Shown here: positions 1 through 13,152 of the stretch, piece after piece
Layout of the letters: every line of letters begins with the position of its first letter
Numbering within the stretch: the stretch's first letter is position 1
The notes under the pieces: generated by a model
The model's database searches: none
What the model saw: only the letters and a program-made list of their open reading frames with translations
Told to the model about the DNA's origin: nothing
Assembly: GCA_020216655.1 (NCBI GenBank)
Contig: JAIWNU010000138.1
Span: 1 to 14,952, forward strand
Reading direction: 5' to 3'
From: Treponema sp.
GTDB taxonomy: Bacteria; Spirochaetota; Spirochaetia; Treponematales; Breznakiellaceae
Length of the DNA: 14,952 nt
Program-made: the position numbers and the translations under genes

Positions 1-977
1 TTGGGGTGATACCAGCTGTTGGGATTAAAAAGATCATTGGTATAAATAACGGGGAGATACAATCCCATTTTCAGTTTCCCGATAGAGAATACGGGTTGGA
101 TTACTGCTTTAGAATAAGTATTTCCATCGATAACCACAGAACCAATTTCAAAGCCCAGTATGTCTCCCAGCCATTTCATCAATTTAGATTCCTGGGCAGG
201 CTTGGATGCTGGTTTTTCTGCAGTTTCGGTGCTAGGAGTGCTGGTCTCTGCAACAGGAGCAGTAGTCTTTTCCTCAGGTTTTGCCTTTTCCTCTCCCTGT
301 GTGGTTTCTTGCTGAGGAACCGAAGCAGGATCTACGGCTTTAAATTCATCAACATCACCGAAATCATTGGAGAATTGTTCCGGAGTAAAGGGCGAAGGAA
401 TAAAACTGGGTCCGAAAACATCGGCAAACTGACCGGCACCAACTAAGATCGGCTGCAGAGTACCGTCAGCAAGGGTTTTCGCAAACTCTACGAGACCTCG
501 CCGTACATAGACCGCATCGCGGGCTCCCGCCACCACCAGCATGCTAAAATCGGTTCCCCGGACGCCACAGACCGCGGTCGGTGTTTTAATCTGGTATTTA
601 TTGCTGCCGACTGTCTTTGCCGCTACGGTTCTTATTTTTCCGCCGAGCAGGGCAAACTCGTTAGTGTCTTTGCCTGCGGAACCCGCGAGGCCTTCTACTT
701 TAAAGCTGGTATTCCGGGCTATTTTGATAATACTGCCGTTTGGATCCAGTTTTAATTCCGCGTTGGTGGCCAGAGTTTTAATTGTTTCTCCCGGCAATAT
801 CTCGTCTCCGACATAGGCGCTGCGGATGGTTCCTCCGCTGGTCAGTATTTGGATCGCTGTTTCATCGTCCGCATATACCAGGAGCGCCTTGGGTCCTGTC
901 TGGGCGAACAGGCCGTTTGCAGCCACAAACAAAGCAATAAAAAATAATGCAAAAAATCTATTATATTTTTGCAACAT
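1..977 (-). CDS. FecR-domain secreted protein with C-terminal barrel-like region (3' end beyond window)
   Basis: The frame is open from ATG at 977 to the left edge, giving 325 residues without a stop. A strong Shine-Dalgarno (GGGAGGAT) sits just upstream. A signal peptide with a hydrophobic core (residues 8-23) probably ends at LFA-Q (25/26). The FecR fold follows (about residues 30-180), with its signature CGVRGTDF at 137-144. In the known family this periplasmic beta domain acts in FecR sigma regulators, but it is also common as a stand-alone envelope module. Next is a Pro/Glu/Thr-rich linker (about 213-262), then the start of a region (SIGKLKMGLYLPVIY) that looks like beta-barrel strands and matches the barrel protein just upstream. 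No transmembrane anti-sigma helix or sigma gene is visible, so an outer-membrane structural role is more likely than signalling. It lies 15 nt behind the 463-aa gene, probably in the same transcript. Confidence 0.85.
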   Translation of the reverse strand, partial: MLQKYNRFFALFFIALFVAANGLFAQTGPKALLVYADDETAIQILTSGGTIRSAYVGDEILPGETIKTLATNAELKLDPNGSIIKIARNTSFKVEGLAGSAGKDTNEFALLGGKIRTVAAKTVGSNKYQIKTPTAVCGVRGTDFSMLVVAGARDAVYVRRGLVEFAKTLADGTLQPILVGAGQFADVFGPSFIPSPFTPEQFSNDFGDVDEFKAVDPASVPQQETTQGEEKAKPEEKTTAPVAETSTPSTETAEKPASKPAQESKLMKWLGDILGFEIGSVVIDGNTYSKAVIQPVFSIGKLKMGLYLPVIYTNDLFNPNSWYHP

Positions 978-992
978 GAACATCCTCCCTTT

Positions 993-2384
993 TCAGAACT
1001 GAATCGAGCTCATGAGGCTCGATGTTACTATATAATTGCCAGTGGCGGGATCGTAACGCAGGTTGTATAACAGGCTTAAGACCGCAGGACCCGTTCTGTA
1101 ATTAATTTTAGCACCGATTACCGCGTTTTCAGGGCTCACAAGATCTTTCCAGAAGTTGCCTGTACCGATGGGACTCGGAGCGCCTAAATAGTATTTTTCA
1201 TAGAGGGCGTCAAAAGAAAAGCCTGCGAGGAAGCCCTCCGCCAAGGTAAATACGCCCCGGAGATGGGGGTAGTCGGTAATGCGCGGATTGGTATCAGGGG
1301 CAGCCTTAAATGGCCCGTCCAGCGTAGCCTGGAATACAATCGCGTCGGACAGCAATGAGAAACCGAGGTTCGCGAGCCAGCCAGCATATACGGAACCAGA
1401 GGCTTCCTGCTGGAGAGCCTGATATTTAAGATGCCGGAAAAGGTCATAGGAACCATCAAAATAGGTCGGAATAAAATCAGGTCCAAGGAGCCGTATCTGG
1501 GCTCCGTACAGCATGAAGCCCGCCATTTTTCCACCCATACCAACCATACTGCCCCAGCGTCCTTTGGGTTCAAAGGCAAGGTCAGCAAAGGCGGCCATAT
1601 TTACAAGAGACGTACTCAGGACCGGCAATTTTGTGTCTACCCCTGCGATGGTAACCGTCTCAGCGGAACCAATCATAGTCTTAAAGGTATCGCTGGCATA
1701 GCGCAGTGGATCCGTGTCTGCAGCGACGGTGGCTCCGATTTGCAGATTTTTAAGCAGCGGCATCTCGGTGCCGGCAAGGGGCCTTACATAGAGGCGGGTT
1801 CCAAAAACATCAAACTTTGCGAGGTTTCCCGCAAAGGTTTCGATTCCTACATAGGGAAAGTCGAAAAGCTGGCCGTCCACGTCCAGGGCGGCACCAAAAA
1901 TTCGTGTTTCAGGAAGGAAGCGGGTATTGGAGTAGTTTCCCATAATAAAGCCGTTTCCCAGGGTGCCGTCATCGAAGGATCCGAGCTTTACAAAAAGGTT
2001 TTCACCCTTTTGGCCATAACGGACATAGGCAATTTTGGGTAAATATAACTCAAAAAAGCTTTTTCCTGCTTTTTCAGGAATCCAGTCCGGTTCGTATATT
2101 TCTATGGCCGTTCCGTTTTGTCCTGGTTTGATATTGAAATGCAGGGTAACATCCAGGCCTACACCAATTTTCCCAAAAGAAATATCAGGTTTTAAGGCAA
2201 GTTTTTGATAGGTTGCCTGATTGGTACTGTCTGCTGGTGCAGTAGGATCTATTGGTAAGGTTTCTGTTCCCAGACCCAGTTCAAACTTAAACCCAAATGG
2301 TGACGCTGCATCGCTTCCTTCAGCCACAACAAAAGAAAGGCTGATAAAAACTAATAAGGTGACGACTAAAAGCCTGTTTCTCAT
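993..2384 (-). CDS. Outer-membrane beta-barrel protein, 463 aa, function unknown
   Basis: I chose ATG 2384 because an SD (GGAGGA) lies about 8 nt upstream and the product then begins directly with a signal peptide (MRNRLLVVTLLVFISLSFVVA, likely cut near residue 21). An in-frame upstream start at 2405 would only add seven residues before it. The mature protein shows alternating polar/hydrophobic beta strands, Gly and aromatic residues throughout, a distinctive stretch YVRYGQKGENLFVKLGSFDD and a terminal SSIQF, the C-terminal Phe beta signal expected for BamA-dependent barrels. No catalytic motif is seen. The N-terminal strands (ATYQKLALKPDISFGKIGVGLDV) align with the visible end of the downstream FecR protein, suggesting paralogous barrels. 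The gene follows the giant SprA-like gene by 71 bp and has its own copy of a conserved promoter-like element. A porin or assembly role is possible but not shown. Confidence 0.8.
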   Translation of the reverse strand: MRNRLLVVTLLVFISLSFVVAEGSDAASPFGFKFELGLGTETLPIDPTAPADSTNQATYQKLALKPDISFGKIGVGLDVTLHFNIKPGQNGTAIEIYEPDWIPEKAGKSFFELYLPKIAYVRYGQKGENLFVKLGSFDDGTLGNGFIMGNYSNTRFLPETRIFGAALDVDGQLFDFPYVGIETFAGNLAKFDVFGTRLYVRPLAGTEMPLLKNLQIGATVAADTDPLRYASDTFKTMIGSAETVTIAGVDTKLPVLSTSLVNMAAFADLAFEPKGRWGSMVGMGGKMAGFMLYGAQIRLLGPDFIPTYFDGSYDLFRHLKYQALQQEASGSVYAGWLANLGFSLLSDAIVFQATLDGPFKAAPDTNPRITDYPHLRGVFTLAEGFLAGFSFDALYEKYYLGAPSPIGTGNFWKDLVSPENAVIGAKINYRTGPAVLSLLYNLRYDPATGNYIVTSSLMSSIQF

Positions 2385-2407
2385 ACAACTGGTCCTCCAT
2401 GTCATTC

Positions 2408-2429
2408 ATAGTATACTACAAAATTGACT
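2408..2429 (-). promoter_or_regulatory. Palindromic promoter/operator element, copy A
   Basis: This 22-bp element matches the one at 7616-7637 in 20 of 22 positions. It contains the perfect palindrome TAGTATACTA, within which TATACT can serve as a -10 box reading leftwards. The predicted start of transcription would lie about 19 nt before ATG 2384, leaving a short leader that holds the SD. No good -35 box at normal spacing is visible, so either an activator is needed or the palindrome is a repressor site. It probably gives the 463-aa and FecR genes their own promoter within the cluster. Confidence 0.55.
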
Positions 2430-2455: not shown

Positions 2456-5400
2456 TTAGAATTGGACCTTAATTTGGATTCCCGTACTGCCAAGTAAGGT
2501 AAAGCTGTTTTTTTCTAAATTGTGGTCATATTGAGCTTTGCCGAAGGCGCTTATGGTAAGGCGGTTGCGTATCCTTACAATGGATTCATGGCTTATGCTT
2601 AATTGCCATGTATCAGAGCTGCCCATATCTATTTTTGTTTCTAGTGTCTCTTTTTGCAGCAATTCTGCCGGGGATGCTGCCATTTCAGCAAGGCCGGGTA
2701 TGCTGTTTTGTATCCTTGTATTTGATGAAAGGGTTCTGAAAAGCGCTCCCAATAGGCTCTGAGGATTGGGCCGGGTCCAAGAGAGCCCCAGAGCATCGGA
2801 CCAGCGGGTTTGCATAAGATTCAATGCATTGTTGATTTCTAGACTAGATCCAGAAAACCCATAAAAGGAAGAGCGCTGCTGGAGGACCGCTTTCCATTCC
2901 TGCAAAATATAGTCGCTGTAAGTGAAATTAAGACTAAGCTGCTGTGAAAATTCATCATCCCGATAAACCTTAATGAGAGGGCTCTGGCCATAGGCACCGA
3001 ACAGATTGACCGCCGATGAGGCGACGCTGGTTTCCCAGAAAAGTTTATCCGTATAGTTCAATAAATTCCGTTCAGCCCTTCTTGCTATTTTAGACTCTAG
3101 CCTTGCAGGGAATATGAGGGCCCACGGATTTGCAGGGGAAGGGGCCTGAATAGAAAACGTGTAGCTATCAATAAAAGATAATGAACCCAGTCCGCCGCTT
3201 TGCCCATCCTGATTTAAAATGAAATACTCTTTGAGCTCCGGCGCAAAAAGCCCATAAATCGGAGGAATCAGCACTATTTTTTGATGAGCGCTGATAAACG
3301 ACGCGTATTGGTCTGCATCAGTCCATAAGCTTGAGCCTGCGCCAGAACTATTCTGTTTAATCTCCCGGCGAAATCCCGCATTTCCCTTAAGGGCCGAAAA
3401 GGTAAATGGAAATGAAAACCCGTACTGAATAGCCTGATCCGCCGCATTCAAATTTTTCTGAGACCGGGAACTCATAACAGCATCAGCAGAAAATCCTAAA
3501 GGTTTTAGTTCTAGTCCGCTTTTTGCACCAAGGGTCCATACTCGGCTTCGTGCATCGAGCCCTTCGTCCGGCAAAAGGCTTTTCATGCTTTCGGTCCATA
3601 CAAGGGAGTATCCCGCGCTGGTCCCGGAAAACGCCTCCGCTGCGCTGTTGGTATACGATAGATCCCCTGTAGAAGCTATATAGAACACTTTATTCCGGCT
3701 TTCGGCGCTGTATTTCCATTGGCGCTGAACAGTAACAATTTCCTGACTGGCCTGGGCGGAAAGGCTGGCTGTAAATGACAAGTCGGGCATGAGTATACGC
3801 GGGATGCTTACTTTTCCTGTTCCCTGATGCGTATAACTTGTTTGGTCTAGGGAAAAACTGTTCGTAACTTCCAGGGGGCCCAAGGGGAGGGTAATGCGGT
3901 GGGCGCCGTTCCAGATAAGGCTATTCTGCTCCGCGGTGATTCCGCCCTGCAGCTCTATCGGGCAGCCCAGGAGAACAAAAGACGCGGAAGATTGGTTCTG
4001 AATGTTGGTAAAGGCTGCAGGGTAGGGGGCTTCCGCGGGAAGCTGGTAGAGGCCTTCGGAGGAACTGAGAAGCTTAAGATCCGAAAGGATGGGGACCTTG
4101 TTCAGGGATAGGCGCGGTCCTTTTTGATTCCACTGCACCGAGAGGCCGCTCCGTCCCTGGAAGCTTGCGACAGCCTCGGTGAATAGGATCTCATCAACAG
4201 CAAAATTCCCAGCAGGTAAGGTTGATGAACTATCCTGAGGCAAAAGATAAAAGGCTACATATTGATAAAGCCCCTCCGCAGTAGTTCCGCCGAGGCCCTC
4301 GGTCCCCGCGGGCATAAAAGTTACCGTTGCATTTTGTATGGCCTTTCCATCTATAAATACCTGTTTCTGGCTCGTATTATATTGAATGTCAACCTTGGAC
4401 CACTGGCCTGGCGTGAAGGAAGAAATGGGGATACGGACCTTGATGTAGGGGCTTGCGAAACGGTCAAGGCTGGAAGCCACGAGGATGACCAATGTGCCGC
4501 TATTTAGGCTTGTCTGATCCGTACTTGACTGCGGCCCTCTGACAAAAAGAGTCAGGTTTTTGTAATTTTCTGGCGGCGGCGCCAGTACCCGGCTGTCCGC
4601 CCCGGCTCCCATGCCGCCCGTGCTGGTGCCAAGGCCGCTAAAGGAGACCTCCAGGACCCGCTGAGGCGCGCCTGCGGGATGAAGCTTGTCGATCAGGTCG
4701 CCGTAGCGGCTGCGGAGGCTTGGGTCGGCAAATTCTCGCGCATCGACCTGCGCATCGCTCTCCGCAGCCGCTGGCCGCGGCAGCCCTCCAGCAACCACGA
4801 TGGGCCGGGTACTGGCGCCGCTCACGACCGGCGGGCCTGAGATGAGCCGGGTACTCAGCGTGTAGTCTGTGCCGCTTGTAACCACCACAAGCCGCATGGC
4901 CCGGGCCCCAGCTAGGGCCCGCCGGTCGGCCTCGCTTAAGGTAAGGGTGGCGGTCTGCCATTGGGACGGCAATGTTGCGCCAGGCGCGAGGCTTGAGCTA
5001 TTAAATATTTCCGCGGTAAGGACGATGGCGCTGTTTTCCCAGCCCGTGCTGCCCGTGTCGCTTGAGCCCGTGCTGCCAGAAGCGGTACCAGATGCGCCGT
5101 CCAGGGCGCCGATCTGAAGGTAAACTTGTACGGTGATACCCGTAAGCGAAGGGGGAACATGGTAAAACCTGAAGGGTATAACAATGTGGCGAGCCCCCGC
5201 CAAGGCGCTTGAGGCATCTTCCATCGGTACTTGGAATCCCGCCCAGAAACGGATTTCGGTATAGGTGGCTTCGCCGACTAAAACCATAGTATCCAGGGTA
5301 CTGTCGCTCACCAGGTAGGGGCCGGTTCTGTCTGAGATAAGCCGGGCCCCATCCCAGTCAATCCCGTGAAGCGTGCTGATGCCGAGGATGTCCGTAGAGC

Positions 5401-7606
5401 TATAGGAACGGTAGACCAGGTCTGCCTGGTTGTCTGCTGTAAGCGCGGGCAAAGGCGAGCGATAATCATTAAGGCTTCGGGGTAGAAAACTCTGATAAAA
5501 GCCTGAAACAGGGAAGGGTTCGGCGTAACGGGCCCCTTCCATCCCTAAAATGCGGTATATGCCCGTTGTGTCTTCCTGTCGGTAAAAGAGACCCGCCCTG
5601 CTGTAAAGAGCCAGATTTTCCCAATCCCATCTGAGGCTTCCCGAAAGGCCCACCGTGCCGGGACTGGTGCTGGAGCCTTCCGAAAATGCATCGGGGCTCA
5701 CGTTCCAGCGCAGTCCCATGGCTAGTTCTGCGGAAAAGGCCCCTCCGCTCTGGTAGCTCGCCCCGATACCTGCAGAGAGGCTCCCGAAACGCCGTTCTTC
5801 ACTCCGTTTAAGGTACTGGATCCGTATCCACTCCTGATCTGATGGAGGACTAGCCAGGCGGACCTCTCCGGTTTCACTGTCATAGCTTGCAAAGGGATCC
5901 GGAAGTCCGTTCCGGTATACCTGTACTGAGCCGGGGAGTACATCCTTTCCTATAAAGAGGGATCCTGGACTACCATAGGTGGTAACAAGAATCGCTTTAT
6001 CAAGACTCGCGGAACTGGAGGCGGGAAGGTAGAGCTCAGGATGCTGATTGACCAGGGGCCAGCGGCTTTCAGTACTGCGGATGTCGTAGTCCTTCGTCGT
6101 ATCCACCAGCTCATAGAGGGTTGCACCGGTAGCAGCGCTGGAAGCCGCATCGCTTGTACCGCTAGAGCTAGCGGCGGTAGCTGATGCTGTGGATGTAATG
6201 ACGCTATATGAAGAGAGGGGCTCCAGGGAATAGCCCTTTTCCGGCTCCCCTGCGGAGCGGTTAACTAATTGTACTTTAGCGGAGGCCCCCGCTTGGATCT
6301 GGTACCTGCTGAGACGCTCGAAGGGGGAGAATGTGCCCCGTTCCCAGATAACCAGGCAGCTTGTGCTGCCAATAGTCACCGTTGCAGGTTTGTTGTTGTC
6401 AGTCCCGATGTAATTTGTATTTTTCTGCCCCGGCTGCGGGTAGTTCCGGAGGGCAAACTTAACCGCACTGGAATTAAAAGCCCCCTGTGCCGCGCCGAGG
6501 AAACCGGGGCCCGCAGCTGATGTATCTCCGTAGGAGCCGAGGCTGCTTGACCAGGGATTGTTAGAGGCTCCCTTCCGATAAGCCACGGCGAGGCGCTTCC
6601 CCGCCGCAAGGACCGAGGGACTGCGTATTTCAATGATCCCATAGCGGGCGCTTGCAGCGTATTCGGAGGCTAAAGCTAATCTCCAGCGAGATCCATATTC
6701 ATCAATCTGGTCACCCTTGGGATCTTCGATATAGAGCACCGGGACCGTATCCAGGCTTTCATCGGGGAGCACAAAGGAGTAGCCCCGGACCATGCTGGAA
6801 AGTTCGATGCTGTTCGTGCTTATTTCCCGGCTTCCGATGTAGTTTTTTTCTTTCAGTTTTGCCCCGTCGTAGCGGACCATGCCATGTACGGTAAGCTGCG
6901 GTTGCTTGCTGCTATTCTGCGGTTTAAGACTCTTACTTTGACTATCCTGGGCAGACGCATCACCGGGCTGGCTTATTTTTTCACCCCTGAGAATGTCAGC
7001 AAAGAGCCATCGGGTATAAAACCCAAAGGAAGATGGGCTTGAGCCCCCCAGGTCCAGGTATGGAAAACGGGGGAAATCAAGGCCCGTGTTGCCAACCCCA
7101 GCGTATTGCAGTTTCTCATTAAGAGTCCCCTGATAGCCTGCCCGGTAGGTATTAAGATCATAGTTATCTAAAAAGCTTGCTTCTAAAAACCAGCGGTCCC
7201 GGATCCAAAGGCTCAAGGTAAGATCCGCCTTCTGGGTAAAAAGCAGGGGATTGTTTGTCGCTGCGGCTTGTAAACCTAAATCGGTGAGAGCAAGGCCGCC
7301 CTGGGCAGTGAGACCCGCTTCCCAAGACCCCTGGAGGAGGAGATTCACCGAACTGTCGTTTCTTGAAAGATTAAAAAGAGAAGGAGAGGCTTCCTCCGCC
7401 TGTCTTGATGGTATTGATGAAAGCCCCCCTGGGTCAGTAGCGGTAGTGGAAAGGCTGCTTCCCTGTACGACAGCAGGTGAAGGATTGTCGTTTTGCGCAA
7501 GGGCTGGGCTTGCGAATAAAATAGCGAATAAAATCAATATCAGAAAAAGAAAAATGGGTGAGTCTTTTTGTTTTACTGTGTGACAGATGCTTCGCAAAGA
7601 ACCCAT
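2456..7606 (-). CDS. Giant outer-membrane protein, SprA-like architecture (about 1716 aa)
   Basis: The open frame extends upstream to 7723. ATG 7606 is preferred because it yields a signal peptide (hydrophobic 18-33, cleavage near ASPALA-Q, 37/38) and because longer starts overlap the divergent gene. The mature protein is almost all beta. About 45-250 holds strand-rich segments with an FGFYTRWLFADIL-type stretch. About 470-500 is a Ser/Ala linker. About 560-585 has a VYRNGLPDP...YDSETGEVRL motif typical of large beta-barrel translocon-like proteins. About 780-910 and 1015-1150 resemble carbohydrate-binding or LamG-like beta sandwiches, split by a Gly/Ser linker near 835-855. About 1190-1716 is barrel-like and ends IQIKVQF, a C-terminal Phe beta signal. 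The order resembles SprA, the type IX secretion barrel of Bacteroidetes, but similarity is judged by eye. No other T9SS gene is seen. No SD precedes the start. It heads the leftward cluster. Confidence 0.8.
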   Translation of the reverse strand: MGSLRSICHTVKQKDSPIFLFLILILFAILFASPALAQNDNPSPAVVQGSSLSTTATDPGGLSSIPSRQAEEASPSLFNLSRNDSSVNLLLQGSWEAGLTAQGGLALTDLGLQAAATNNPLLFTQKADLTLSLWIRDRWFLEASFLDNYDLNTYRAGYQGTLNEKLQYAGVGNTGLDFPRFPYLDLGGSSPSSFGFYTRWLFADILRGEKISQPGDASAQDSQSKSLKPQNSSKQPQLTVHGMVRYDGAKLKEKNYIGSREISTNSIELSSMVRGYSFVLPDESLDTVPVLYIEDPKGDQIDEYGSRWRLALASEYAASARYGIIEIRSPSVLAAGKRLAVAYRKGASNNPWSSSLGSYGDTSAAGPGFLGAAQGAFNSSAVKFALRNYPQPGQKNTNYIGTDNNKPATVTIGSTSCLVIWERGTFSPFERLSRYQIQAGASAKVQLVNRSAGEPEKGYSLEPLSSYSVITSTASATAASSSGTSDAASSAATGATLYELVDTTKDYDIRSTESRWPLVNQHPELYLPASSSASLDKAILVTTYGSPGSLFIGKDVLPGSVQVYRNGLPDPFASYDSETGEVRLASPPSDQEWIRIQYLKRSEERRFGSLSAGIGASYQSGGAFSAELAMGLRWNVSPDAFSEGSSTSPGTVGLSGSLRWDWENLALYSRAGLFYRQEDTTGIYRILGMEGARYAEPFPVSGFYQSFLPRSLNDYRSPLPALTADNQADLVYRSYSSTDILGISTLHGIDWDGARLISDRTGPYLVSDSTLDTMVLVGEATYTEIRFWAGFQVPMEDASSALAGARHIVIPFRFYHVPPSLTGITVQVYLQIGALDGASGTASGSTGSSDTGSTGWENSAIVLTAEIFNSSSLAPGATLPSQWQTATLTLSEADRRALAGARAMRLVVVTSGTDYTLSTRLISGPPVVSGASTRPIVVAGGLPRPAAAESDAQVDAREFADPSLRSRYGDLIDKLHPAGAPQRVLEVSFSGLGTSTGGMGAGADSRVLAPPPENYKNLTLFVRGPQSSTDQTSLNSGTLVILVASSLDRFASPYIKVRIPISSFTPGQWSKVDIQYNTSQKQVFIDGKAIQNATVTFMPAGTEGLGGTTAEGLYQYVAFYLLPQDSSSTLPAGNFAVDEILFTEAVASFQGRSGLSVQWNQKGPRLSLNKVPILSDLKLLSSSEGLYQLPAEAPYPAAFTNIQNQSSASFVLLGCPIELQGGITAEQNSLIWNGAHRITLPLGPLEVTNSFSLDQTSYTHQGTGKVSIPRILMPDLSFTASLSAQASQEIVTVQRQWKYSAESRNKVFYIASTGDLSYTNSAAEAFSGTSAGYSLVWTESMKSLLPDEGLDARSRVWTLGAKSGLELKPLGFSADAVMSSRSQKNLNAADQAIQYGFSFPFTFSALKGNAGFRREIKQNSSGAGSSLWTDADQYASFISAHQKIVLIPPIYGLFAPELKEYFILNQDGQSGGLGSLSFIDSYTFSIQAPSPANPWALIFPARLESKIARRAERNLLNYTDKLFWETSVASSAVNLFGAYGQSPLIKVYRDDEFSQQLSLNFTYSDYILQEWKAVLQQRSSFYGFSGSSLEINNALNLMQTRWSDALGLSWTRPNPQSLLGALFRTLSSNTRIQNSIPGLAEMAASPAELLQKETLETKIDMGSSDTWQLSISHESIVRIRNRLTISAFGKAQYDHNLEKNSFTLLGSTGIQIKVQF

Positions 7607-7620
7607 GAATAGTGTATAGT
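7591..7620 (+). promoter_or_regulatory. Possible rightward promoter for the DUF503 operon
   Basis: TTCGCA (7591-7596) and TATAGT (7615-7620) form a weak -35/-10 pair with an 18-bp spacer, overlapping the start of the divergent giant gene and the palindromic element. The resulting leader would contain a small hairpin (CCTGG paired with CCAGG, 7635-7651) that touches the SD of the first gene. This is a tentative call. Confidence 0.25.
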
Positions 7621-7637
7621 ATACTACAAGATTGCCT
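7616..7637 (-). promoter_or_regulatory. Palindromic promoter/operator element, copy B
   Basis: This second copy of the 22-bp element lies between the giant gene (minus) and the DUF503 gene (plus). The palindrome TAGTATACTA occupies 7617-7626. Read leftwards, its TATACT would start transcription only about 4-5 nt before ATG 7606, so the giant mRNA may be almost leaderless. Because the core is symmetric it can also act as a -10 or operator for the rightward operon, so both directions may be controlled together. Confidence 0.55.
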
Positions 7638-7661
7638 GGTGTAATGCCAGGGGGGCAGACT

Positions 7662-7949
7662 ATGGTTGTTTCGATGATACAGATGATCTTTGAAATCCCC
7701 GATGTGGAAAGCATTAAGGACAAACGGAAAATAGTAAGGTCCGTAAAGGATAAGCTCCAGCGCCAGTTTCACATGAGCGCAGCAGAAATAGACCTGCAGG
7801 ATTCACTTTCTTTTGCCCATATCGGCGGGGCTTTGGTTTCTAATTCCCGAACCTTTGGCGAATCGGTGCTGAACAAGGCATTTTCCATGATAGAACAGGA
7901 AGTACCGGTGAGAATCCAGGATGTACAAATATATTCGGAGGAATTTTAA
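7662..7949 (+). CDS. DUF503 (YlxP-like) family protein, 95 aa
   Basis: ATG 7662 is chosen over TTG 7632 and ATG 7644 because a G-rich SD (AGGGGGG) sits six bases before it and because family members begin close to this point. The sequence follows the DUF503 pattern well: a beta strand (MIQMIFEIPD), the conserved turn SIKDKRKIVRSVKDKL, then FHMSAAEIDLQD and a second strand GGALVSNS, ending with a helix VLNKAFSMIE. Length is normal for the family. The small ferredoxin-like fold has no proven function. In Firmicutes the homologue ylxP sits near infB and rbfA, which has led to guesses about translation or ribosome roles. Here it instead leads an operon with two envelope genes, 12 nt ahead of a lipoprotein gene. 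A cytosolic location is expected, since there is no signal peptide. Confidence 0.88.
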   Translation: MVVSMIQMIFEIPDVESIKDKRKIVRSVKDKLQRQFHMSAAEIDLQDSLSFAHIGGALVSNSRTFGESVLNKAFSMIEQEVPVRIQDVQIYSEEF

Positions 7950-7961
7950 CAGGAGTGTGTC

Positions 7962-8624
7962 ATGAAAAAGTTTTTACAAGAGTGCATAGATAGACGAAAA
8001 ATCTGTGGCAGCATCGTAACAATGCTGTTCATCATTTTATCCCTCAGTTCCTGCATCGGCCTCAATTCTAATGTGACCATCCGTCAGAATGGTTCCGGTA
8101 CCATTCAAATGGAATACCGGCTCTCTCGCATGTTTGAAGCTTTGGGAAAGCTGGACGGCAATGAAAAACAGCTGCCCCTGCCGGTAAGCCGCACCGATTT
8201 TGAACGAACCCTCGCTCGTGTTCCTGGTTTGTCTCTTTCATCTTATTCAAGCAGCCAGGATGATAAAGATATTATTGTAAAGGCCGAACTCGCTTTTACG
8301 AACCTAGAAGCTCTTAAAGGTTTTCTGGATGCCACAGGCCAATCGGTGCGGCTTGCAACAGAAGGCGGAAACAGAACCCTGGAACTTGTGCTTGTACGGG
8401 GAATAAAGAACGTTGACAAGGAATTGGAAAACCTGGTTCGCACCGTATTTTCTGTCTATACTATAGATATGCGTTTTACTTTCCCCTCGGTACCGACCAT
8501 GTCTACTACAGGTAAAATTGGCCAAGGTACTGTTACAGGAAACTCTGCCAGGTTTAGTTCATCGGTAACCGATCTGGTTTTGAGTTCTGATGCTGTTCAG
8601 CTAAAGCTTTCTTGGAAAGAATAA
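7962..8624 (+). CDS. Lipoprotein, possibly LppM-like, 220 aa
   Basis: ATG 7962 has an SD (AGGAG) with a six-base spacer. The N-terminus has a basic region (RRK, 11-13), a hydrophobic stretch (18-28) and a lipobox LSSC with Cys31 as the lipidated residue; the positively charged region is unusually long. The mature part starts with GLNSNVTIRQNGSGTIQMEYRLS, followed by alternating strands and helices. Such a pattern after a lipobox is reminiscent of the LppM / DUF3153 domain, which has a similar first strand pair, but this is a weak visual match. No catalytic motif is seen. The lipoprotein is probably anchored in the inner or outer membrane facing the periplasm. It sits between the DUF503 gene (12 nt) and the Ig-like/CsgG-like gene (13 nt to the chosen start), so the three are very likely co-transcribed. 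Confidence 0.8.
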   Translation: MKKFLQECIDRRKICGSIVTMLFIILSLSSCIGLNSNVTIRQNGSGTIQMEYRLSRMFEALGKLDGNEKQLPLPVSRTDFERTLARVPGLSLSSYSSSQDDKDIIVKAELAFTNLEALKGFLDATGQSVRLATEGGNRTLELVLVRGIKNVDKELENLVRTVFSVYTIDMRFTFPSVPTMSTTGKIGQGTVTGNSARFSSSVTDLVLSSDAVQLKLSWKE

Positions 8625-8637
8625 TAGGGTGAAAAAG

Positions 8638-9792
8638 ATGAATAATCGCCGTGTAAATTTATTTTTTGCGGTCATACTCTTTCTTTTTTTGCTAGCTAAC
8701 AGCCTCAGCGTATCTGCCCAAAGTCAGAATGTGCTTTCATCCATGGAAAGCCTTATGAAGGCTTCCCAGGACGCCTTTGATACCAACCACCCGGTAGAGG
8801 CTTTAAGACATTTAGTGGCAGTCCTTGCCCTCAACGAAGAAGGCCAAGCAGAAACCTCCGCGGCATCGAAAAGCCGCAGGGCCGAATTGGTGAGACAGGC
8901 GGATCAAAAACTCACAGAAATCGGAGCCCGGCTTACCTTGGAAGCCGGAGACGGATGGATGAATAGTGATGGCACCCAGCGGGCTGGAAATGTGAGGGAG
9001 CTCGCCAAAGGTACCGGCCTTATGCCCTCCGTACGATTGGTTGTAAATTACGATTTTGGCAAAGCTGTGGTGGCCGATGCACCGATCCGTTTCGCCTTTG
9101 TAGACGGTCTTGGAGACATCACCTTTTCTGCAACTACGGACGCGAATGGAGTTGCTTCTGCGGTGGTTCGCAGCGTACAGCGGACTGACAAACCGGTGTT
9201 GATTAGGGCTACCCTGGTTATTTCCAATAGGGGTAAAACAAGGGTTTTCCCCGAAGTTCATAGGGATTTTGCCTATGTTCTACCAGCTCGGACCGCTCGG
9301 ATCTTTGCGTCAGAAGGGCCTGCTGTCCCTAGTGCGGCTCAAGGCTTTCAAGCAAACGGTGCAGCAGCCCTTGCAGACAGCATTGGCAGGTCCCTGAAGG
9401 CCGCGGGGCTCGATTTGGTTCCAGCCGATGCTGCATTGGATCCTAAAACCTTTACGGCAGCTATGCAGGGAGATCTCGACGCGATCCAAAAGGCTTGTAC
9501 TCTAGGGGGGACCAGTGTTTCCTATCTTGTTCTTGCCGAAGTTCGTTACGATGAGCCTCGCCAAATGGTTCTGAACGGCAAGGCATACAATATTTACACC
9601 GCTACTGCCCGAGCCCAGATTCGAATTGTGAGGCGCAATGGTACTATTGCTATAAGCAGACCGGTGATTTCTGTGAAAGGTCAGGGCGGCAACACCGAGG
9701 CAGCAATCCAATCAGCCCTTGCGGAAGCGCGCAAGGCGGTAGAACAGGATCTCGCAACAAGTGCAGATGAGCTTGTAAAATCGCTGGACTAA
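8638..9792 (+). CDS. Secreted protein with Ig-like domain and CsgG/FlgT/LPP20-like C-terminus, 384 aa
   Basis: A GTG at 8629 is in frame, but ATG 8638 is preferred since AGGG at 8626-8629 is then an SD at 8-base spacing. The signal peptide core is 8-20 and cleavage is likely at VSA-Q (27/28). Residues about 30-95 are helical, TPR-like. Residues about 115-210 read as a bacterial Ig-like strand domain: a PIRFAFVDGLGDITF strand pair, then TTDANGVASAVV, the hallmark loop of invasin-type Ig modules. Residues about 235-384 (SIGRSLKAAGLDLV, then strands and a Gly-rich KGQGGN turn, then an AEARKAVEQDL helix) resemble the CsgG/FlgT/LPP20 fold found in envelope assembly proteins. The fold calls are by eye. 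It is the last gene of the rightward operon and is followed by a strong hairpin. It is probably periplasmic and may work with the upstream lipoprotein. Confidence 0.75.
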   Translation: MNNRRVNLFFAVILFLFLLANSLSVSAQSQNVLSSMESLMKASQDAFDTNHPVEALRHLVAVLALNEEGQAETSAASKSRRAELVRQADQKLTEIGARLTLEAGDGWMNSDGTQRAGNVRELAKGTGLMPSVRLVVNYDFGKAVVADAPIRFAFVDGLGDITFSATTDANGVASAVVRSVQRTDKPVLIRATLVISNRGKTRVFPEVHRDFAYVLPARTARIFASEGPAVPSAAQGFQANGAAALADSIGRSLKAAGLDLVPADAALDPKTFTAAMQGDLDAIQKACTLGGTSVSYLVLAEVRYDEPRQMVLNGKAYNIYTATARAQIRIVRRNGTIAISRPVISVKGQGGNTEAAIQSALAEARKAVEQDLATSADELVKSLD

Positions 9793-11977: not shown

Positions 11978-11985
11978 AAATGCGT

Positions 11986-13152
11986 ATGTCAAATCAAGAA
12001 AGAAAAACCGTGCTGGACTTGCCTCTTAAGATTGTGTTGTCCGAAGAGGGGACTACTGTATTTATTAAACAGAACAAGAAACTTGCTAAATTTAAACTGG
12101 CAGACAATAAGGAAGAGTACGGCTTATTGCTCGATAAATTTGTACCCACCGCCATACAACGGCTTTTGCTCATCGATTATATTTCAAAAATAGAAATTTC
12201 GCGGCCAGAATTTGTATCCCGCCGCCAGGAAGTAATGGACCTTTGCAAGCTCATTGTCTACAGCTTGCTGTACCGGCAGTTCAACAATGCATTGTTCTCA
12301 AAACTGCTCGCATCAGAGGTGATAAAAAAATGGAACCGTACCAACCCGTCATCCATAATTGATGAAAAGACTAAATTTAATGAAACCTTTTTGCAAAACT
12401 ATTTAAAAGAACAGGAAAAACAGGTTTTTGAATTAAAAGAAGAAATATTATCTCCTATTCGTACCGCGGTCACGAGGAATTCCAATCTGCTTCCGGAAGA
12501 AAAAAATATACAGCTTTTTTTAAGTGAAAAGCTCCTTAATAATCTCCGATCGATCATCTGGTTTATACTTATCAAGTTCCGCGGGGTGGAGAATTTTGAT
12601 AACCTTATAAAAGATATCCGGTACAGCGTCGCGGAATATATTGAAAAGTCCCGTATTGCTGAATATGTGGCCCTCATGGTGATAGAACTGGCGGTGAACG
12701 CGGAAAATACCAACTTAAGACGGGAAGCCGCAACGCTCTACCGGGGGGCGGTGGATGCCAATGCGGTCCTTTTTGATCAAAATATCCGTATGAGAGTTAT
12801 TGAAGAGTTAACCAGAAAAAACGATCTGGTCTACGTTTCCTGGAAAATTGGCGGAACCAGCACCAGCATCGGTACCCAGGGAAAACTCCAGATTACCTTG
12901 TACAATAAAGAAAGTGAATATCAGGAAATAAAAGACAGCATCGATTCTAAAAAATCGGCGGATCTTAAAAAGAAGAGCCTCTTTGATTTTTACAAGGAAA
13001 TCCCTGAAGGGGGCGCCGATACGGAGCTGGGACTCTACTATTTATCATACCTGAGCGAAGCCTGTGAAAAGGTAGGAGTAAAATTCGAGTCCCTGGTGAG
13101 TCAGATTAAAAGCTCCGACACTACAATAATTACCTTAAGTTTTTATCTATAA
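11986..13152 (+). CDS. Cytosolic protein with degenerate GHKL ATPase-like C-terminal half, 388 aa
   Basis: The start ATG 11986 is set by the promoter; no SD exists and the earlier ATG at 11980 is likely untranscribed. No signal peptide or membrane segment is seen. Residues 1-220 are mainly helical with charged segments. Residues about 226-388 match the layout of histidine-kinase-type (GHKL) ATPases by eye: helix ALMVIELAVNAENTN places Glu234 and Asn238 as in the N-box, a strand LQITLYN sits where the G1-box strand lies, and GGADTELGLYYLSYLSEA resembles the G2-box followed by its helix; the end TTIITLSFYL fits the last strand. The normal DxGxG G1 motif is absent, so ATP binding is doubtful. 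No phospho-acceptor His or receiver domain neighbours it. The gene is divergent from the M28-like membrane protein and its stop codon is 4 bp from the FTR stop. Confidence 0.72.
   Translation: MSNQERKTVLDLPLKIVLSEEGTTVFIKQNKKLAKFKLADNKEEYGLLLDKFVPTAIQRLLLIDYISKIEISRPEFVSRRQEVMDLCKLIVYSLLYRQFNNALFSKLLASEVIKKWNRTNPSSIIDEKTKFNETFLQNYLKEQEKQVFELKEEILSPIRTAVTRNSNLLPEEKNIQLFLSEKLLNNLRSIIWFILIKFRGVENFDNLIKDIRYSVAEYIEKSRIAEYVALMVIELAVNAENTNLRREAATLYRGAVDANAVLFDQNIRMRVIEELTRKNDLVYVSWKIGGTSTSIGTQGKLQITLYNKESEYQEIKDSIDSKKSADLKKKSLFDFYKEIPEGGADTELGLYYLSYLSEACEKVGVKFESLVSQIKSSDTTIITLSFYL

What the first reader, a model, noticed from the sequence alone, without database searches (positions are those of the whole stretch)
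2456..7606. SprA-like giant outer-membrane protein outside Bacteroidetes
A 1716-aa secreted beta protein with barrel-like ends, inserted sandwich domains and a C-terminal Phe signal resembles SprA/Sov, the type IX secretion barrel, but sits in a spirochaete-like genome without visible PorV, PorK/N or gliding genes. It could be a distant relative serving a different export or surface role.
Basis: inference. Interest (0 to 1): 0.72.

Follow-up and report, generated by a model that had tools for sequence, protein, structure and literature searches.

The report
Spirochaete cousin of SprA secretion gate
This gene encodes a giant outer-membrane barrel that is a distant relative of SprA, the protein-export gate of the Bacteroidota type IX secretion system, and in spirochaetes it travels with a PorV-like protein and a giant surface-type protein bearing a similar tail, suggesting a stripped-down export system without the known motor.

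Summary
In detail: window 2456-7606 (-) encodes a 1716-aa secreted beta protein, with family members in 84 of 146 genomes of its order. Sequence: the window family aligns with larger proteins of other Spirochaetota lineages (hhalign E 2.5e-44), and these with Bacteroidota SprA (E 2.5e-48); eight reversed or shuffled controls give E >= 0.13. Fold: AlphaFold models of a complete 1139-aa homolog and of window residues 517-1716 both have four SprA chains as top Foldseek hits (E 8.5e-14 and 6.1e-25). In the same 146 genomes the SprA-like gene co-occurs with a PorV-family gene (80 of 84) and with a giant protein ending in a FlgD/T9SS-CTD-like domain (72 of 84); by genus P is about 1e-10 or less. GldL and GldM have no hit over cut-off in 24 of 24 spirochaete genomes. 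Best reading: a SprA-type translocon, with a PorV-like carrier, exporting one giant surface protein without GldLM. Homology is firm; function is inferred. My paper searches showed no report of it in spirochaetes.

The parts
2456..7606 (-). SprA-like giant outer-membrane protein gene, 1716 aa (P0001)
   Evidence: homology; fold
7493..7606 (-). N-terminal signal-peptide-like stretch, residues 1-38 (start codon uncertain, see promoter-like element)
   Evidence: read from the translation, no signal-peptide program run
6764..7381 (-). Region homologous to the N-terminal part of SprA, about residues 76-281, with the conserved GYQG...GNTG..FP...SFG block
   Evidence: direct hhalign to Bacteroidota SprA, score 50.5 against 16-22 in five controls; invariant columns in A1 and A4
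4148..5572 (-). Inserted beta-sandwich (CBM-like) region, about residues 679-1153
   Evidence: AlphaFold model of residues 517-1716; CBM11/CBM27/FlaA1-type matches at model residues about 163-637; limits approximate
2459..4147 (-). C-terminal barrel-type strands, about residues 1154-1716, ending in Phe
   Evidence: AlphaFold secondary structure; the modelled part, residues 517-1716, aligns to SprA 695-2400
993..2405 (-). 470-aa secreted protein next downstream (called omp470 here), candidate partner; also beside the SprA-like gene in L031 and L050, and in L184 from another lineage of the phylum
3..983 (-). FecR-domain protein, cut by the contig end, same neighbourhood
   Evidence: PF04773 E 9.3e-10
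7616..7629 (-). TTGTAGTATACTAT, promoter- or operator-like element 9 bases before the SprA-like start codon
   Evidence: exact match; 2 found in the window (up to 2 mismatches allowed), 0.07 expected
2408..2421 (-). The same 14-base element 2 bases before the start codon of the 470-aa gene
7632..9792 (+). Conserved flank genes DUF503, 220-aa and 387-aa proteins, used for gene order
   Evidence: DUF503 PF04456 E 2e-26

Best explanation
The gene encodes a divergent member of the SprA/Sov superfamily: a very large single-chain outer-membrane barrel that acts as a protein-export gate. Inferred mechanism: a giant Sec-exported protein reaches the periplasm, its C-terminal Ig-type (FlgD/T9SS-CTD-like) domain enters the SprA-like pore, binds a PorV-family (UPF0164) carrier docked at the lateral opening, and leaves sideways with it to be displayed on the surface. 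The known GldLM motor is not detected, so energy must come from another source, such as folding on the outside or an unrecognised motor. Shown: homology to SprA, SprA-like predicted fold, co-occurrence of the three genes, no GldL/GldM hit over cut-off. Inferred: direct interaction, cargo identity, direction of transport, energy source.
Confidence: 0.6

Rival explanations
1. SprA homolog by descent, but repurposed: it is not a CTD-protein translocon but a large surface or porin-like barrel, or a channel for something else, and the other two genes are kept for unrelated reasons in the same lineages.
For: No GldL/GldM over cut-off. The 1139-aa homologs are about 580 residues shorter than the window protein. 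PorV family occurs without a SprA-like hit in 10 genomes. The genes are unlinked.
Against: Tight co-occurrence with a CTD-type giant protein, including within genus g49, where the five listed genomes lacking the SprA-like gene (G377, G391, G397, G400, G401) are also not among the CTD or PorV matches.
Confidence: 0.28
2. SprA-like translocon that exports something else, for example the neighbouring 470-aa and FecR-domain proteins, which share gene order and, for the 470-aa gene, an identical upstream element.
For: 470-aa and FecR genes directly downstream in the window, L031 and L050, and also beside the SprA-like gene in L184 from another lineage; identical 14-base element before both starts.
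Against: The pair lies beside the SprA-like gene in only 2 of 20 fetched Treponematales neighbourhoods plus the window, and in 1 of 20 other-lineage ones, with one further weak match to the 470-aa protein in L175. Whether they need export by this route is not known.
Confidence: 0.09
3. An unrelated large outer-membrane protein (LptD-like, TonB-type or adhesin) whose resemblance to SprA is convergence of beta-barrel composition.
For: LptD chains appear in the Foldseek lists at E about 1e-4 and TonB-type ones weaker. The window protein alone has no family hit.
Against: Gap between SprA and the next matches in both models; profile-profile E 2.5e-44 and 2.5e-48 with reversed and shuffled controls at E >= 0.13; end-to-end alignment of P0115 to SprA.
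Confidence: 0.03

Closest known systems
[quoted passage not shown] PDB 6h3i, 6h3j, 8gl6, 8gl8)
   Same: Homologous over most of the length by transitive profile comparison; predicted fold of P0115 matches end to end; many-stranded chain (35 strands of 9 or more residues in that model; 36-strand barrel in SprA, PMC10994853 Main section).
   Different: Shorter (1716 or 1139 aa against about 2400); below the family cut-off; found without detectable GldLM.
SprA-PorV-Plug sets of Ignavibacterium and Melioribacter
   Same: PMC11705866 (passages) states that members of these genera have PorV, SprA and Plug but no other T9SS protein: a printed precedent for a translocon without the motor.
   Different: Those are named there as SprA outright; the same paper on oral bacteria has no occurrence of 'Treponema' or 'Spirochaet' in its main text. 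I did not compare sequences with them.
PorV/PorQ carrier family (NF033709) and UPF0164 (PF03687)
   Same: A full-length member in the window genome (G000:C7:4524-5426, E 2.1e-18), the family co-occurring with the SprA-like gene.
   Different: Below cut-off; closer to UPF0164 (E 5.9e-52), whose T. pallidum members TP0856 and TP0858 are called FadL orthologs (a title in the reference list of PMC11668736); carries a weak C-terminal TPR match.
T9SS type A C-terminal domain (TIGR04183) and FlgD_ig (PF13860)
   Same: Extreme C-terminal Ig-type domain on a giant protein, usually one per genome.
   Different: FlgD_ig scores better than the T9SS tail model; one tail match in the own genome against 31, 34 and 144 in the three Bacteroidota.

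Membership tests
SprA/Sov protein superfamily | Sequence homology to Bacteroidota SprA | tested here: met
   Transitive hhalign E 2.5e-44 and 2.5e-48 with eight controls E >= 0.13; direct E 5.8e-4.
SprA/Sov protein superfamily | SprA fold: one very large many-stranded outer-membrane chain | tested here: met
   Predicted models only; four SprA chains are the top Foldseek hits for both. Barrel closure and lateral gate were not measured.
TIGR04189 equivalog (T9SS translocon Sov/SprA) | Curated cut-off of 200 bits | tested here: not met
   0 of 296 Spirochaetota genomes over the cut-off; window protein no hit.
Pfam SprA_N (PF14349) | Match to the profile | tested here: inconclusive
   No match in the own genome, but no control genome rang either; not among the hits of 19 members in the Pfam scan.
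Type IX secretion system | PorV-type carrier | tested here: inconclusive
   PorV-family hit in 90 of 146 order genomes at E <= 1e-8, 0 of 146 over cut-off; also UPF0164.
Type IX secretion system | Substrates with C-terminal sorting domain | tested here: inconclusive
   A giant protein with such a domain in 73 of 146 genomes; own hit 23.3 bits at cut-off 23 in the genome search but 19.1 bits in hmmscan; FlgD_ig above cut-off.
Type IX secretion system | GldL/GldM (PorL/PorM) motor | tested here: not met
   0 of 24 spirochaete genomes over cut-off; below it, GldL matches at E <= 1 in 22 of 24 (best 1.2e-5; 9 of 14 controls ring likewise) and GldM in 4 of 24 (best 0.097). 2 of 3 Bacteroidota positive, the third (1.3 Mb held) without either.
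Type IX secretion system | GldK/GldN, SprE/PorW, PorU sortase | not tested
   Not searched. A TPR protein of about 1025 aa lies beside the PorV-like gene in 8 of 8 Treponematales loci read; likeness to SprE is only a lead.

The most novel reading that the evidence does not exclude
Spirochaetes carry a motor-free, single-cargo type IX-like export system: a SprA-type translocon, a UPF0164/PorV-type carrier and one dedicated giant C-terminal-domain protein. It would be either the ancestral core to which Bacteroidota added GldLM and gliding, or a reduced derivative. It would also mean that UPF0164 proteins of treponemes derive from a secretion carrier.
Probability: 0.5. Interest if true: 0.88.

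Novelty: new variant of a known kind. Interest (0 to 1): 0.78.

Why it matters
T9SS is described as confined to Bacteroidetes (PMC4793230, PMC5445135, PMC7323717, passages read); one paper notes motorless SprA-PorV-Plug sets in Ignavibacterium and Melioribacter (PMC11705866, passages). A homologous translocon across Spirochaetota, with candidate carrier and cargo but no detectable motor, would change the picture of how the system arose and make testable which part of T9SS transport really needs the motor; PMC10994853 (abstract) deduces that energy is needed to release the substrate-carrier complex. It also gives a functional hypothesis for a giant hypothetical protein family and for UPF0164 proteins.

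Tried and rejected
Single-sequence Pfam, NCBIfam and PDB-sequence searches of the window protein: nothing usable. Pfam scan of 19 members: no SprA_N, only weak laminin-G and chance hits. Profile hmmsearch of A1 against PDB sequences: a weak jelly-roll hit and chance hits. A homology search with only the first 420 residues of the 1139-aa homolog was a mistake and found nothing; repeated with the full protein. PF14349 in the own genome is uninformative, since no control rang. Unrelated barrel (LptD, TonB-type) rejected because SprA stands clear of them. I first expected the T9SS-tail hits in treponemes to be flagellar FlgD; rejected because in G001, G030, G047 and G017 they end ORFs of 3105, 2918, 2461 and 2199 aa, although FlgD_ig is still the best profile. 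GldL hits below cut-off in spirochaetes (E 1.2e-5 and weaker) were set aside; most lie in longer frames, and 9 of 14 controls ring too. Structure of the 470-aa neighbour and of residues 1-516 was not predicted (both AlphaFold jobs used). Other phyla, and the Ignavibacterium/Melioribacter SprA of PMC11705866, were not compared.

Full report
OBSERVATION. The ORF at 7606-2456 (-) is 1716 aa without an internal stop, with a signal-peptide-like N-terminus and a terminal Phe. The own genome is a 2.66-Mb, 89.6% complete assembly of 251 contigs, and the window is the whole contig C158. The complete relative G001 has the contig length of the Gracilinema caldarium entry P0010. The homology search gave 113 entries (the query included; 7994 candidates scored) at E <= 0.001; those with organism names are Gracilinema, Treponema or other spirochaetes. 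A profile (A4) finds the protein in 84 of 146 genomes of the order. Of 20 fetched neighbourhoods, 12 keep DUF503 and 15 the 390-aa gene near the SprA-like gene, and 16 keep at least one; four (L035, L036, L038, L044) show neither, two of them on short stretches. So most are orthologs by gene order; the 1139-aa group (L035, L038) is a homolog without that support.

IDENTITY BY SEQUENCE. The window protein alone has no Pfam or NCBIfam match and no useful PDB match. Of 19 family members scanned, 4 match TIGR04189, the T9SS translocon Sov/SprA, best E 0.0072. I fetched SprA genes with a peptide recalled from memory; the 80 record titles are Bacteroidota taxa, one labelled Chlorobiota. A direct hhalign of 36 spirochaete proteins with 35 SprA proteins scored 50.5 (E 5.8e-4, probability 29%) over 169 collinear columns, against 16-22 for five reversed or shuffled controls.

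TIGR04189 over 296 Spirochaetota genomes matched 87 at E <= 1, 0 over cut-off; 83 of the 87 lie outside the window's class, best E 4.7e-30, mostly in frames of about 1800-2060 aa; 1 of 14 control genomes also rang at E <= 1. Twenty of these loci, from 19 families, were fetched and their longest ORF taken. The window family against them gives E 2.5e-44 over 936 columns, plus a second C-terminal match at E 4.6e-4; they against SprA give E 2.5e-48 over 1117 columns. The best of eight control comparisons had E 0.13. The window protein is thus homologous to SprA by a chain of two strong links.

PARTNERS. In the window genome a PorV-family protein lies at C7:4524-5426 (E 2.1e-18, below cut-off); it is also UPF0164 (E 5.9e-52). 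Its gene is adjacent to a TPR protein of about 1025 aa in 8 of 8 Treponematales loci read. The T9SS sorting-tail model hits one place in the own genome, C156:1904-2119, the extreme C-terminus of an ORF cut by the contig end. In G001, G030, G047 and G017 the same tail ends ORFs of 3105, 2918, 2461 and 2199 aa. Its best Pfam match is FlgD_ig (E 1.1e-7), and the tail model rings in 3 of 14 control genomes too. GldM and GldL have no match over cut-off in 24 of 24 spirochaete genomes; 2 of 3 Bacteroidota do. Below cut-off, GldL matches occur in 22 of 24 (best 1.2e-5) but also in 9 of 14 controls.

CO-OCCURRENCE. The same 146 order genomes were searched for the SprA-like protein (84), the giant CTD protein (73) and the PorV family at E <= 1e-8 (90; 0 of 14 controls). 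SprA-like and CTD: both 72, SprA-like only 12, CTD only 1, neither 61 (Fisher P 2.4e-27). SprA-like and PorV: 80, 4, 10, 52 (P 1.9e-24). All three: 70; any: 94. Because related genomes are not independent I repeated it by genus (n = 60): 32/5/1/22 and 36/1/3/20, P 1.1e-10 and 8.2e-12. Within genus g49, the six genomes with the SprA-like gene all have PorV and five have the CTD giant; the five listed genomes without it (G377, G391, G397, G400, G401) are in neither of the other match lists. Several negative genomes are 98-100% complete (G031, G262, G012), so absence is not only incompleteness. The CTD profile was built from five genomes that all carry the SprA-like gene.

WINDOW NEIGHBOURS. Directly downstream lie a 470-aa secreted protein and a FecR-domain protein; both also follow the SprA-like gene in L031 and L050, and lie beside it in L184 from another lineage of the phylum. 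An identical 14-base element lies 2 and 9 bases before the annotated start codons of the 470-aa and SprA-like genes (2 found, 0.07 expected). This points to co-regulation, or to starts placed too far upstream.

LITERATURE. PMC4793230 (passages) found T9SS in 60 of 97 Bacteroidetes genomes and none elsewhere; PMC5445135 and PMC7323717 (passages) also treat it as Bacteroidetes-specific. PMC11705866 (passages) says Melioribacter and Ignavibacterium have PorV, SprA and Plug but no other T9SS protein; its main text has no occurrence of 'Treponema' or 'Spirochaet'. PMC9581022 and PMC6775972 (passages) name no spirochaete SprA in what I saw. PMC10994853 (abstract, Main section, passages) describes the 36-strand SprA barrel, lateral opening, PorV carrier and GldLM motor. 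PMC11668736 was seen in passages. The listings of searches showed no report of a spirochaete SprA homolog; of the listed papers only those named here were opened, and most subscription papers and preprints are not in that library.

CONCLUSION. A SprA homolog outside Bacteroidota is well supported. That it works as a motor-free translocon for one giant CTD protein with a UPF0164/PorV carrier is the best explanation of the co-occurrence, but it is inference. It should not be filed as a type IX secretion system, because the motor was tested and not found.

Noticed in passing
L043, L045, L049 (G047, G050, G056), and P0139: In these genomes of family f3 the DinB (DNA polymerase IV) gene runs without a stop codon straight into the SprA-like gene as one open frame of 1948-2113 aa; P0139 (1938 aa) carries three precomputed Pfam domains that I know from memory as DNA polymerase IV-type. 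Either a fusion with an internal signal peptide or a second start inside the frame.
   Followed up: partly
window 2408-2421 and 7616-7629: Identical TTGTAGTATACTAT, holding the perfect palindrome TAGTATACTA, directly before the starts of the 470-aa and SprA-like genes; its last 12 bases also occur in L002, L003, L004 and L031 from the same genus, and once in the Bacteroidota locus L091.
   Followed up: partly
L223-L230: UPF0164/PorV-like gene adjacent to a ~1025-aa TPR protein in 8 of 8 Treponematales loci, with a further large protein beyond it whose sequence looks like a membrane-bound phosphatase (my reading, no family search); possible extra components.
   Followed up: partly
L218 2951-12265 (-): Giant 3105-aa protein with long, nearly identical internal repeats and a C-terminal FlgD/T9SS-tail-like domain; no Pfam match over cut-off when scanned whole.
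   Followed up: partly
window 11980-13152 (+): 390-aa protein without a significant family match but conserved (48-92% identity) near the SprA-like gene in 15 of 20 neighbourhoods.
   Followed up: no
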